A stretch of DNA of 64,000 nucleotides from an uncultured Ilyobacter sp. (lineage in GTDB: Bacteria; Fusobacteriota; Fusobacteriia; Fusobacteriales; Fusobacteriaceae). The DNA lies in the NCBI RefSeq assembly GCF_963668085.1, contig NZ_OY764059.1, positions 1,116,001-1,180,000 of the forward strand, given 5' to 3'. The position numbers and the translations under genes were made by a program. Of this stretch, positions 850 through 48,105 are shown in pieces. The notes beneath the pieces were generated by a model. It saw nothing but the letters and a program-made list of their open reading frames with translations, did not search any database and was not told the DNA's origin. Each line of letters opens with the position of its first letter. The stretch's first letter is position 1.

Positions 850-965
850 AACTATACCCGACAGTCATCTCCCCAAGGTGGCTGTCACCCAAAAACTTAT
901 ATGCAATATGTCTAATCCAATAAGGATGATGAGATGATCAACAGTGGTCATCTCATTTTTTTATA
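850..965 (+). ncRNA. Structured small RNA, copy 1
   Basis: A 10-bp hairpin (860-869 with 877-886, loop tccccaa, two wobble pairs that only form on the plus strand) is followed by an A/C-rich single-stranded stretch and a second 10-bp hairpin (930-939 with 946-955) ending in a T run, a Rho-independent terminator. A second copy lies at 44919-45029. The first 36 bases from 853 are identical in both, the linker is variable, and the terminator stem carries a compensatory G-C to A-T change. No open frame fits. The class is unknown; the C-rich loop could bind Shine-Dalgarno sequences, which is inference. Confidence 0.7.
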
Positions 966-978
966 AAATATTTTTCCG

Positions 979-1009
979 AGAGGGGTACAGATCTGTACCC
1001 CTCTTTTTA
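979..1009 (+). terminator. Perfect 26-bp palindromic terminator
   Basis: Positions 979-1004 are a perfect inverted repeat centred on AGATCT with GAGGGGTACAG arms, followed by five T residues. It insulates the prophage late genes from the small RNA upstream. Confidence 0.75.
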
Positions 1010-2401: not shown

Positions 2402-3379
2402 ATGAATGAAAAAATGATATATTTGATTGCCCTTATTAATGAGGCACAGCAAAGAATACAAGGGCCTAAGATCTATACAAATAAGTTCTTGGCCTCTGGA
2501 AACAAATTCCTTTCTAATACGGAAACTATCAGAATTGATGAACTTCTAGATCACTTTGTAGTAGCCGGAATAGTTGGAAGAAGTGACGTTCTGCCTCTAT
2601 TAGAGAAAGACGGATTCCAAAAGACAGAGTTCGAACCAGATATTGTCGGTGGTACTTATCCATACTCAGCCTCAGACGTTCTTAATCTTAGAGCCGGAGT
2701 ACCTACATACACAACAGACGGGAAAGAGATTAATTCAGTAGCAGCCTTAGAGGTTAAATACTCTAAGATGGCAGCAGCAGCGATCTATAACAGAGTTGAA
2801 AGACAATGTGCAGACGCTTACTTAAAAGGAACTTATACAGATAAGAATGGAACTGTTCACAATGTAGGAGTAACTTCAAGCACTACTCTATCCCTTACAG
2901 ATAAAGTGGTATCTGACGAGATCCTAAAGAAAGTAACAACTTTCATTAAAAAATACGGTGTATCTCCTAAGATTGAGGCCGGAATAAATGTTTTCAACGC
3001 TATTAAGAACGAGGCAAGAAACAGCGAGAATAATATTAACGGTGTATCTTTTGCTTATAACGGAGATTCTGCAACTCTTACAGTAGCCGGAAAGCAAATT
3101 GAACTTCTTATAGACGCTATAGGAACAGACGGAAACACTATTGATACCTCTTCAATGCTTATTCTTTCTGACAAGGAAACTCTTGGAGTTGGTTATGGTT
3201 GCCTAACTTGGGGAGATGTAACCTCTAATGAAACTAAAATAGCTAGAGCGGAATTAATAGCCGGGGAACTTTCTGTGGAAACTACTACAGGTCAAAAAGG
3301 TCTATGGGCTAAGTCAGCACCTATGCCAGTTGTTTTAAACCACGATAAGTTCATAAAATATAACTGTACTGGACTATAA
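2402..3379 (+). CDS. Major capsid protein, lambda gpE family
   Basis: 325 residues, within the normal range for the major capsid protein E family. The N-terminus has the family layout: IYTNKFLASGNKFLSNTETI, then HFVVAGIVGRSD, then a FEPDIVGGTYPYSASD stretch that aligns with the E-loop region. It forms the icosahedral shell. It lies six bases after the decoration protein gene, and the pairing of D and E is the lambda head arrangement. Codon use includes many GCC and CCGG-containing codons, unlike the chromosomal genes farther right, consistent with phage origin. Confidence 0.85.
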   Translation: MNEKMIYLIALINEAQQRIQGPKIYTNKFLASGNKFLSNTETIRIDELLDHFVVAGIVGRSDVLPLLEKDGFQKTEFEPDIVGGTYPYSASDVLNLRAGVPTYTTDGKEINSVAALEVKYSKMAAAAIYNRVERQCADAYLKGTYTDKNGTVHNVGVTSSTTLSLTDKVVSDEILKKVTTFIKKYGVSPKIEAGINVFNAIKNEARNSENNINGVSFAYNGDSATLTVAGKQIELLIDAIGTDGNTIDTSSMLILSDKETLGVGYGCLTWGDVTSNETKIARAELIAGELSVETTTGQKGLWAKSAPMPVVLNHDKFIKYNCTGL

Positions 3380-43723: not shown

Positions 43724-44080
43724 TTGAAAACAATAGTACAGTTATTTGGAAAGGATTTGAATAAAGTGCCAGATGTACTGAGAAAGATAGCAGATGAAAT
43801 AGAAAATGGAAAAACTGATTCAAGCTGTCTAGAAGACGAATATTGCTACGACTATCTTATTGAAGAAGAAAGCTACTACAGAAAATTTTTAGTTTATTCA
43901 AATGATGAGATTATTGGTTTGGACGGAAAAAATAGAAAAGAGGCCAAAATTCTGGGAATAGCATTTGGATCCTGTCCACACGAAGCTTTTGAAAATTTTT
44001 ACGTTAAAGATAAAAAACTCAAAAACATAGTTGTTAGAGAAATATTAGGAAACCCAGCTTATAAAAATTTAAAAGAATAG
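43724..44080 (+). CDS. Hypothetical protein
   Basis: 118 residues from TTG with GGAGGA before it. The N-terminal half (VQLFGKDLNKVPDVLRKIADEIENGK) is a helix; the rest is mixed with SCPHEAFENFY. Acidic. No family recognised. Confidence 0.55.
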   Translation: MKTIVQLFGKDLNKVPDVLRKIADEIENGKTDSSCLEDEYCYDYLIEEESYYRKFLVYSNDEIIGLDGKNRKEAKILGIAFGSCPHEAFENFYVKDKKLKNIVVREILGNPAYKNLKE

Positions 44081-44285: not shown

Positions 44286-44675
44286 ATGTATTTTAAACAA
44301 ATCAAAAAAATAATAGAAAACTATGTAGACAACTTAAATTCTCTGGATATTTCCAAGATTATTTCTTTAGTTCACCAAGAAATAAATATTTATAGCATGA
44401 AAAATGGTAAAATTATAAAATTAGCTTTTGGGATCGAAGAATTTAAAAGTATTCTAAATTCTTTTGATTTGGAGTATCAATTTATTTATTGGAAAATTCT
44501 TAATAAAAATATAAAAAATGAAGTTGCCGAGATAACTATTAAACAAAAGATATTTTTTATGGAAGATATCCCTGATGGACCTAAAGCCTGGGATATGAAA
44601 GAACAAATTTCAAAAATGATTTTTAAATTTGAAAAATTAAAAATTAAAAATATTTTTATAATACATAAAAATTAA
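44286..44675 (+). CDS. NTF2-like domain protein, paralogue 1
   Basis: 129 residues with the NTF2/SnoaL-like order: an N-terminal helix NLNSLDISKIISLVH, IYSMKNGK, FGIEEFKSIL, and closing strands (EVAEITIKQKIFFM). About three quarters identical to the gene at 46521, with the same GGTGATACTATGTA start context. Function unknown; such folds often bind small molecules. Confidence 0.65.
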   Translation: MYFKQIKKIIENYVDNLNSLDISKIISLVHQEINIYSMKNGKIIKLAFGIEEFKSILNSFDLEYQFIYWKILNKNIKNEVAEITIKQKIFFMEDIPDGPKAWDMKEQISKMIFKFEKLKIKNIFIIHKN

Positions 44676-44918
44676 TTTAAATAAACATTGTTTTTAACTA
44701 ATTATACCAATATATAAAATTACATGTTTAATTTCAAAAGAATACATGTTGATTAATAACTTGTGAATCATATAACTTATTTAATATTGATCTTTAGTTG
44801 AAGTATCAAGGATATAAAAATACTACTTAATAAAAATAAAATTACATTTTTTTATAAAAAAAAGTTCATTTTTTGATAGTTTTATGATAAAGTATAGTAT
44901 AACAAAACTTTCCAACCA

Positions 44919-45029
44919 GCTATACCCGACAGTCATCTCCCCAAGGTGGCTGTCAACCCAAAACTTATATTCAATATTTATAATTGAAAAATATGATGAG
45001 ATAATCGCCAATGGTTATCTCATTTTTTA
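44919..45029 (+). ncRNA. Structured small RNA, copy 2
   Basis: Same architecture as copy 1. Hairpin 1: 44928-44937 with 44945-44954, sequence identical to copy 1. Hairpin 2: 44997-45006 with 45013-45022, plus a T run, carrying A-T where copy 1 has G-C. A promoter-like TTGATA at 44873 and TATAGT/TATAAC at about 44894-44902 precede it. Confidence 0.7.
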
Positions 45030-46410: not shown

Positions 46411-46520
46411 GTGAAATGTAATATGAAACAGACTAAAACCTTATATTTATTTGATACTATGTTTACTAATAAAATTTTTATATATCGTTGCAATGGTTTA
46501 AAAATCCCAAAGGTGATACT

Positions 46521-46910
46521 ATGTATATTAATAAAATTAAAAGTATAATAGAGGATTATATAAGCAGCCTTAACTCCTCGGATATTTCCAAAATTATTTC
46601 TTTAGTTCACCGAGATATAGGTATTTACAGCATGAAAAATGGTGATATTGTAAAATTGGCTTTAGGTAAAGAGGAATTCAAGAGTATTCTAGAATCTTTT
46701 AACCTTGAATATCAATTTATCTACTGGAAAATTCTCAATAATAATATAAAAAAGGAAGCAGCTGAGATAACTATTAAACAAAAAATATTTTTTATGGAAG
46801 ACATCCCTAATGGCCCTGAAGCCTGGGATATGGAGGAACAGACTTCAAAAATGGTTTTTAAATTTGAAAAATTAAAGATTAAAAATATTTTTATAATACA
46901 CAGTAAATAA
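46521..46910 (+). CDS. NTF2-like domain protein, paralogue 2
   Basis: 129 residues from ATG at 46521 (AGGTGATACT before it). Differs from paralogue 1 at scattered residues and retains IYSMKNGD, GKEEFKSILESF, EYQFIYWKIL and the FFMEDIPNGPEAWDM stretch. The pair lies in duplicated DNA; divergence suggests selection retains the protein. Confidence 0.65.
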   Translation: MYINKIKSIIEDYISSLNSSDISKIISLVHRDIGIYSMKNGDIVKLALGKEEFKSILESFNLEYQFIYWKILNNNIKKEAAEITIKQKIFFMEDIPNGPEAWDMEEQTSKMVFKFEKLKIKNIFIIHSK

Positions 46911-47133: not shown

Positions 47134-47271
47134 ATATAGGGGCCTAGAAGGCCTTTTTATTTTTCCAAATCAATTTTTTATAAAAATTGTAAAGTAAAAT
47201 TATAGGTACTACACCAAAAATTAATAACAACTTTTACTAGTATGCCTTCCTCTTGGAATGGCAACACTTTT

Positions 47272-48105
47272 TTAGACAACTTTTTTAAGGTTATTCATTC
47301 TGTACTCTACTGGCGTTTGATAACCAAGAGAAGAGTGGATTCTGTGGTTATTAAACCAGTTAACATAATCTAATAATTCATAATTTAATTCTTCTAAGGA
47401 ATCAAAATAAACTCCATTTATAAATTCCGTCTTTATGGTTTTGAAGGTGGCTTCTGCCACTGCATTATCGTATGGACACCCTTTCATACTTAAAGAACGC
47501 CTAATATTAAAGGTTTCTAGCGTTCTTTTTATTAATTGATTATTAAATTCATTTCCACGGTCCGTATGGAAAATTTTAACCTTTTGTAGGTTTCCTTTCA
47601 CTTTTGAAAAAGCTCTTGCTACCAACTGGGCATCTTTGTTTTTTCCAGAGCTATAACCTATGATTTCTCTGTTAAAAAGATCTATTAAGACACAGATATA
47701 ATTCCAGGCCTTACCTACCCTGACGTAGGTTAAATCGCTAACTACAACTTGTAGATGATCCTTTTTGTTAAAATTACGCTCAACTAAATTAGCCAACTCT
47801 TCTTCATTGACTTTGTCGTGATGTGGCTTAAAATTTGCGATTATATATTTTGATACCAACCCATTTTGTTTCATGATTGAGCTTATTCGTCTTCTGGAAA
47901 TTTTATGTCCCAGTTTAAAAAGCTCAAATTTTATTCTTCTGGTTCCATAGTTTCTTCTACTCTCTTCAAAAATATCTTTGATTAGTTCTATTAAAGGAGA
48001 GATGTTATTTTTAATTTTAGACTTGTAATAATAGATACTTCTAGAAATCTCAAGGACTTGGCACATTGCTGATACAGAGTATTTGTGAATATTATTTTTA
48101 ATCAC
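47272..48105 (-). CDS. IS3 transposase OrfB (DDE integrase)
   Basis: 277 residues. DDE motif: VVSDLTYVR, HTDRGNEFN and DNAVAEATFKTIKTE. Probably made as an OrfAB fusion by -1 shift at TTTAAAG on the minus strand (48138-48144), where OrfA reads T TTA AAG and the -1 frame is open on both sides. Appears intact. Confidence 0.88.
   Translation of the reverse strand: MIKNNIHKYSVSAMCQVLEISRSIYYYKSKIKNNISPLIELIKDIFEESRRNYGTRRIKFELFKLGHKISRRRISSIMKQNGLVSKYIIANFKPHHDKVNEEELANLVERNFNKKDHLQVVVSDLTYVRVGKAWNYICVLIDLFNREIIGYSSGKNKDAQLVARAFSKVKGNLQKVKIFHTDRGNEFNNQLIKRTLETFNIRRSLSMKGCPYDNAVAEATFKTIKTEFINGVYFDSLEELNYELLDYVNWFNNHRIHSSLGYQTPVEYRMNNLKKVV

What the first reader, a model, noticed from the sequence alone, without database searches (positions are those of the whole stretch)
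850..965. Two-copy structured RNA with conserved hairpin and compensatory change
Seen: 853-888 and 44921-44956 are identical over about 36 bases; both carry the 10-bp GACAGTCATC/GGTGGCTGTC stem with wobble pairs specific to the plus strand, then a less conserved linker and a terminator stem in which one pair changes G-C to A-T on both sides. One copy abuts a prophage, the other a repeat-rich region. No open frame fits. Inference: a trans-acting small RNA; the C-rich loop TCCCCAA could pair with Shine-Dalgarno sequences.
Basis: partly seen in the sequence, partly recalled or inferred. Interest (0 to 1): 0.8.

Follow-up and report, generated by a model that had tools for sequence, protein, structure and literature searches.

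The report
Mobile C-rich-loop small RNA family
A short, hairpin-forming RNA gene that the Rfam catalogue does not list is carried in several copies by a prophage, plasmids and chromosomes of the marine bacterium Ilyobacter and its close relatives, and it looks like a small regulatory RNA that uses a run of C's in its loop to grip other RNAs.

Summary
Both form an 11-bp hairpin with loop CCCCA, followed by a linker and a terminator with the stated G-C to A-T change. It is not a two-copy oddity. Covariance models find 12 hairpins: 3 in this genome, 6 in Ilyobacter polytropus DSM 2926 (chromosome I and pILYOP02), 2 in a third genome of the genus, 1 on an IMG/VR phage contig. I found none convincing in the other 95 of 98 Fusobacteriota genomes, and Rfam has no match. 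Arms covary: 8 double-sided changes against 2.8 in shuffles. Five of 8 type-A copies share an extended -10 promoter, and several terminators differ while the hairpin stays. So it is a candidate small RNA family carried by mobile elements. Trans-action through the C-rich loop, as in FoxJ, LhrC or 6C/B11, is the best mechanism, but it is inferred: my target tests were not significant. Unexpected: on pILYOP02 three of four RNA loci lie under 250 nt from a c-di-GMP-I riboswitch, and a 118-aa protein of unknown family lies within 1 kb of a copy in all three genomes. Window copy 1 is prophage cargo and lacks the shared promoter.

The parts
852..963 (+). RNA copy 1 (w1), in a cargo slot of a prophage between a type IIG/ISP restriction gene and the head genes
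   Evidence: R1 72.3 bits, R2 48.0 bits
860..886 (+). 11-bp hairpin of copy 1, loop CCCCA 871-875
928..963 (+). intrinsic terminator of copy 1 (stem 928-957 and T run)
44865..44893 (+). promoter-like element of copy 2: TTCATT, 17 nt, TAAAGT with TGA before it; same layout in 5 of 8 type-A copies
   Evidence: not called by the generic scan
44900..45029 (+). RNA copy 2 (w2) with leader AACAAAACTTTCCAACCAG; start inferred from the -10 box
   Evidence: R1 71.4 bits, R2 47.7 bits
44928..44954 (+). 11-bp hairpin of copy 2, loop CCCCA 44939-44943
44995..45029 (+). intrinsic terminator of copy 2 (stem 44995-45024 and T run)
43724..44080 (+). 118-aa protein of unknown family; a relative lies within 1 kb of an RNA copy in all three genomes of the genus
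44286..44675 (+). 129-aa protein of unknown family, phage cargo gene found 5' of the RNA here, on I. polytropus chromosome I (partial) and on L037

Best explanation
The feature is an independently transcribed small RNA of about 110-130 nt, one of a multi-copy family carried by prophages, plasmids and chromosomes of the Ilyobacter genus. A full unit has its own promoter, a C/U-rich leader (CUUUCCAACC), a conserved hairpin that shows CCCC in its loop, an unpaired (A)CCCCA stretch, and a terminator that varies from copy to copy. Most likely it acts in trans: the exposed C-runs start pairing with G-rich mRNA regions (ribosome-binding sites or G-rich terminators) and block or change translation. 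The mobile elements use it to adjust host or element genes. Shown: sequence, structure, covariation, copies, contexts. Inferred: transcription, trans-action, targets.
For: Copies and distribution. Stem covariation on 11 rows: 97.6% of cells paired; 8 cells changed on both sides against 2.8 in shuffles (0 of 500); best slid register 4. In type A the C-rich loop and stem are kept while flanks, leader and terminator sequence diverge. The promoter layout is shared by 5 of 8 type-A copies. Terminator hairpins of other sequence follow copies b and c (folded) and L037 (by eye). Wobble pairs hold on one strand only. No kept frame. Precedent in the same phylum: FoxJ of F. nucleatum carries a cytosine stretch in a hairpin loop as its likely seed, in a species that lacks Hfq and ProQ (PMC11005410, passages); Hfq is likewise not found in the three genomes here (0 of 3).
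Against: No transcript data. Target tests gave nothing: the best prophage duplex is reached by 10 of 60 dinucleotide shuffles; loop against start regions 112 of 1000; RNA against riboswitch leaders 34 to 196 of 200. w1, copy a and copy c lack the shared promoter pattern, copy c and the I. polytropus chromosome I copy have stem defects, and copy a has no clear terminator. Between the two species the w2 RNA is no better conserved than its flanks (0.95-0.98 over the RNA, mostly 0.90-1.0 around it). On type-A rows alone covariation is modest, and the spacing typed into A8 fits that alignment to the structure.
Confidence: 0.62

Rival explanations
1. A cis-acting leader or insulator: the hairpin and terminator separate transcription units or form part of the leader of the next gene (head genes in the phage, riboswitch-controlled genes on pILYOP02).
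For: Copy a has no clear terminator, and a c-di-GMP-I riboswitch and a TPR gene follow 97 nt on; copy b precedes a riboswitch on the same strand by 175 nt; in both phages the RNA sits just before the head genes.
Against: Downstream genes differ between w1, w2, ownC1, a, b and c; most copies end in their own terminator; the type-B hairpins lie on the opposite strand to their riboswitch; the related prophage L215 has the slot without the RNA.
Confidence: 0.17
2. A decoy RNA that holds a protein or another RNA through its C-rich loop and tail, rather than pairing with mRNAs.
For: The loop and loop-proximal stem are almost invariant in type A, as expected for a protein site too; a 118-aa protein of unknown family lies near a copy in 3 of 3 genomes.
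Against: No protein partner is constant at every copy: each genome has only one 118-aa locus, so w1, ownC1, the I. polytropus chromosome I copy and copies a, b and c have none beside them.
Confidence: 0.12
3. A DNA element (attachment site, recombination site or transposon end) and not an RNA.
For: Several copies lie on mobile elements; comparison of L037, w1 and w2 shows exchange inside the unit.
Against: w1 and w2 are not attL/attR: the prophage extends upstream of w1, and ordinary host genes lie between the copies. Wobble pairs hold on one strand only, and where promoter and terminator are seen their orientation to the hairpin is constant.
Confidence: 0.06
4. Anti-CRISPR RNA that mimics a CRISPR repeat.
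For: Single hairpin units on phage and plasmids.
Against: No Cas1 in this genome; by eye the CRISPR repeats of I. polytropus and G001 bear no likeness to the hairpin, and R2 gives at most 11.3 bits (E 3.9) on those loci.
Confidence: 0.02

Closest known systems
FoxJ and FoxI of Fusobacterium nucleatum (PMC11005410, passages seen)
   Same: Same phylum; cytosine stretch as likely seed, in FoxJ in a hairpin loop; F. nucleatum lacks Hfq and ProQ, and Hfq is not found in the three genomes here (0 of 3; ProQ not searched).
   Different: FoxI and FoxJ have sigma-E promoters; no R1 or R2 hit that I take as real in genomes outside the Ilyobacter genus. Ours lies largely on mobile elements with an extended -10 sigma-70-like promoter. 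The FoxJ sequence itself was not compared.
LhrC1-5 of Listeria (PMC4132741, passages seen)
   Same: Several copies of one small RNA; UCCC motifs in a stem-loop and a single-stranded stretch, for a G-rich site upstream of a start codon.
   Different: Sequence relation not tested; in LhrC the terminator loop carries the motif too, in the window copies it does not; our copies lie on different replicons.
6C / B11 RNA of mycobacteria (PMC10470900, passages seen)
   Same: Hairpin loops with runs of C that pair with G-rich sequences of 5' UTRs or ribosome-binding sites.
   Different: Two C-loops and another phylum; our RNA matches no Rfam family.
Prophage-borne small RNAs such as DicF (recalled)
   Same: Small RNA genes carried by prophages.
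   Different: No sequence likeness was tested.

Membership tests
C-rich-loop trans-acting sRNAs (functional class) | C-run exposed in a hairpin loop or single strand, conserved | tested here: met
   CCCC in 7 of 8 type-A loops, ACCC in the eighth; TCCCC in type B1, shorter C-runs in B2
C-rich-loop trans-acting sRNAs (functional class) | own promoter and terminator | tested here: inconclusive
   shared promoter layout in 5 of 8 type-A copies, not called by the generic scan for copy 2; terminators scanned for w1 and w2 and folded for b and c; no transcript data
C-rich-loop trans-acting sRNAs (functional class) | pairs with G-rich mRNA targets | tested here: inconclusive
   no signal beyond shuffles; only part of the genome tested
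FoxJ/FoxI (homology) | sequence relation and presence in Fusobacterium | tested here: not met
   no convincing R1 or R2 hit outside the Ilyobacter genus among 98 genomes of the phylum; indirect, since the FoxJ sequence itself was not compared
Any of 4227 Rfam families | score at or above the gathering threshold | tested here: not met
   whole window 0 hits; 700-1100 only sub-threshold hits; plasmid and phage loci give c-di-GMP-I riboswitches beside the RNA, not on it; L278 0 hits
Racr anti-CRISPR RNA | likeness to a CRISPR repeat of the host | tested here: not met
Prophage attachment site | copies flank the prophage | tested here: not met
   terminase and portal lie upstream of w1; host genes lie between the copies

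The most novel reading that the evidence does not exclude
The RNA is part of a mobile c-di-GMP signalling cassette: an RNA family that travels with c-di-GMP-I riboswitches, GGDEF/EAL and HD-domain proteins and a 118-aa partner protein, and carries the c-di-GMP response of the plasmid or phage to genes elsewhere in the cell, so that a riboswitch in cis and a C-loop RNA in trans work as a pair.
Probability: 0.13. Interest if true: 0.75.

Novelty: new member of a known kind. Interest (0 to 1): 0.5.

Why it matters
It would be a new RNA family, absent from Rfam, in a phylum whose small RNAs I know only from work on Fusobacterium. It is carried by phages and plasmids, so it may be a way for mobile elements to adjust host genes in cells where no Hfq is found (0 of 3 genomes). 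The closeness to c-di-GMP riboswitches on pILYOP02 can be tested directly in I. polytropus DSM 2926, a cultivable marine-mud isolate.

Tried and rejected
Attachment-site reading of the two direct copies 44 kb apart: rejected, since the prophage continues upstream of w1 and host genes (TldD/PmbA family, ammonium transporter, nitrite/sulphite reductase family) lie between them.

Anti-CRISPR RNA: rejected. Small peptide: rejected. Iteron-like array TTCTCCGCAAGTGTGATGG of pILYOP02 as a relative of the loop: it looked alike by eye, but spacing alternates near 44 and 61, it lies before the ParA gene region, and the models do not hit it.

Target in the phage capsid gene: a perfect 12-nt complement at window 3207-3218 looked striking, but the duplex energy (-33.0) is reached by 10 of 60 dinucleotide shuffles; the related phage L215 has a similar site (-34.8), which the conserved WGDV codons explain. 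An earlier control with 20 plain shuffles at a coarser step (best -32.2) had made it look better. A complement at a his-operon-like junction (label recalled): also present in G001, which has no type-A RNA. Longer complements (8-9 nt) in start regions: 12 found, not tested against shuffles.

Broad scans: genome contigs pattern, 101 stretches reported, 80 received and rescored, best 22.2 bits over loop and inner stem only; viral contigs 15-mer, 74 stretches, only L037 real (67.9 bits), the other 73 at most 20.7 bits. Plasmid search: besides pILYOP02 one 27-nt match in Rossellomorea to the terminator part, E 0.03. Six weak R2 genome hits (E 0.03-0.24) were read by eye and taken as chance; one (L282) is a terminator-like hairpin with TCTCCCCAAG. 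A 131-nt type-B query gave matches at E up to 0.1 in 47 of 98 genomes; I count only the four in G002 and G001 (E 2.5e-9 or better), the rest (best 9e-4) as chance.

Structure predictions of the 118-aa and 129-aa proteins were of low confidence (pLDDT 45 and 37), so no fold search was made.

Counts and dropped rows: A4 used 6 rows; A5 used 8; A8 used 11 of the 12 hairpins (degenerate copy c was left out because of a one-base deletion in its arm). A7 had two type-B rows cut short and was not used for counts.

Full report
Observation. The two copies are real and as described, one base off: 852-887 and 44920-44955 are identical, with an 11-bp stem, loop CCCCA, a linker and a terminator with a compensatory G-C to A-T change. 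Both fold far better than shuffles (z -5.4 and -6.6). Rfam gives nothing.

More copies. A third copy lies on the 31.7-kb contig C1 of the same genome. A 47-position covariance model of six copies (R1) searched over 98 Fusobacteriota genomes found 3 hits in this genome and 4 in G002; the others had E 0.06 or worse. G002 is I. polytropus DSM 2926: its contig lengths 2,046,464 and 961,624 and the record length 124,226 of pILYOP02 equal the published ones (PMC3035301, passages). An eighth copy lies on a 14.3-kb IMG/VR contig, L037. No match in 50,697 phage records; among plasmid records the only match I take as real is pILYOP02.

Divergent relatives. While checking a weak hit I found two tandem hairpins on pILYOP02 (47256-47438) and their counterparts in the third genome of the genus, G001, the first 93% identical over 131 nt. 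The eight outer pairs of the first hairpin are those of type A except for a double change G-C to A-U (and, on pILYOP02, one G-U), and the loop is TCCCC, followed by TCCCC. A joint model (R2) recovers 3 hairpins in G000, 6 in G002 (one degenerate, 21.9 bits) and 2 in G001; six other genomes have weak hits (E 0.03-0.24) that I take as chance. With L037 that makes 12 hairpins. The model was built from 11 of these 12, so their scores are high by construction.

Structure evidence. On 6 or 8 type-A rows alone covariation is modest: 2 double-changed cells, shuffles reach it 26 and 19 times of 500. On the 11 rows of A8: 97.6% of 125 cells paired, 8 double-changed cells against 2.8 in shuffles (0 of 500), 4 in the best slid register; the number of pairs with a double change (3) is not beyond shuffles (140 of 500). 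These cells are few events: one change between types A and B gives four of them. The wobble pairs exist on one strand only.

Gene anatomy. Five of 8 type-A copies have TTYATY, 17 nt, TARART with TG before it, upstream of the hairpin; the pattern was derived from these copies and occurs 3 times in the whole window on both strands, copy 2 included. The generic promoter scan does not call it. The transcript would start near 44900, so the RNA is nearer 130 than 110 nt in copy 2. Leader CTTTCCAACC is exact in 4 of 8 copies, varied in three (a, b, c) and absent from w1. Copies b, c and L037 have terminators of other sequence (folds of b and c). Window copy 1 keeps the hairpin and terminator but shows no likeness to the other copies upstream of 850, beyond the restriction gene's end, so it lacks the shared promoter; it may be read from another promoter or be silent.

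Context. Copy 1 is inside a prophage: terminase, Mu-like portal/head protein, an 82-aa ORF, a 1021-aa type IIG/ISP restriction-modification protein, the RNA, a gene without family match and a capsid gene. In L037 the same slot holds a porin-like reading frame (label by eye), the 129-aa protein and the RNA; in the I. polytropus prophage L215 the slot holds the 129-aa protein but no RNA. Copy 2 sits in a region with two 129-aa genes and a small ORF also found beside the slot in both phages, shared with I. polytropus at 96%: a likely phage remnant. So the RNA looks like cargo that phages gain and lose.

c-di-GMP. On pILYOP02 there are four c-di-GMP-I riboswitches. Copies a and b and the type-B pair lie 97, 175 and 176 nt from one; copy c lies 21 kb away. 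Random placement of four loci reaches 3 of 4 in 3 of 100,000 trials; if a and b are one duplication, 140 of 100,000 (the 250-nt limit was chosen after seeing the distances). G001's type-B pair is about 1.2 kb from a sub-threshold riboswitch match (29.9 bits, cut-off 35) and near a GGDEF-EAL gene. Against this: none of the three RNA loci of this genome is near any of its three riboswitches, the type-B pair points the other way, and there is no pairing signal between RNA and riboswitch leaders. A 118-aa protein of unknown family lies within 1 kb of an RNA copy in all three genomes (about 0.8, 0.25 and 0.6 kb; G002's copy has a stop inside); the fourth genome with a distant relative, G006, has no convincing RNA.

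Mechanism. The best reading is a trans-acting C-loop small RNA, by analogy with FoxJ (same phylum), LhrC and 6C/B11 (passages of PMC11005410, PMC4132741, PMC10470900). Hfq is not found in the three genomes (0 of 3). I could not show a target. Only 91 start regions from part of the genome were tested.

Prior art. Searches for 'Fusobacteriales-1', for 'Ilyobacter' with 'sRNA', and for related terms listed no paper that describes it (listings only); the library holds only part of the literature.

Verdict. A real candidate small RNA family, found only in one genus here, carried by phages, plasmids and chromosomes; function inferred.

Noticed in passing
L015:9640-10110 (pILYOP02 123,640-124,110): Array of about ten units TTCTCCGCAAGTGTGATGG by eye (7 called) with spacings near 44 and 61, just before the ParA gene region; looks like iterons or a partition site.
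   Followed up: partly
L014:7143-8046, L015:8889-8975, L246:31005-31080: Four c-di-GMP-I riboswitches on one plasmid typed as conjugative, beside GGDEF/EAL and HD-domain genes.
   Followed up: yes
L019:5673-8738 (window start to 737): A 1021-aa type IIG/ISP restriction-modification protein carried as prophage cargo between portal and head genes.
   Followed up: partly
window 44286-44675, 46488-46910; L037:2519-2905; L215:6001-6390: 129-aa protein family; the window copy has no Pfam match above the curated cut-off and no PHROGs or PADLOC match. A recurring phage cargo gene, duplicated in the window.
   Followed up: partly
L019:2291-5284 against L037:4479-7403: By eye the C-terminal parts of the portal/head proteins differ between the two phages while roughly the first 690 residues agree; a swapped domain at the edge of the cargo slot.
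   Followed up: no
L282 (G006:C4:209760-209806): Terminator-like hairpin GGCAGCCATTCTCCCCAAGATTTAGGCTGTC in another genus; possibly chance, possibly a far relative.
   Followed up: no
window 978-1005: A second strong terminator directly after copy 1, before the head genes; by eye L037 and L215 have different ones near this place.
   Followed up: partly
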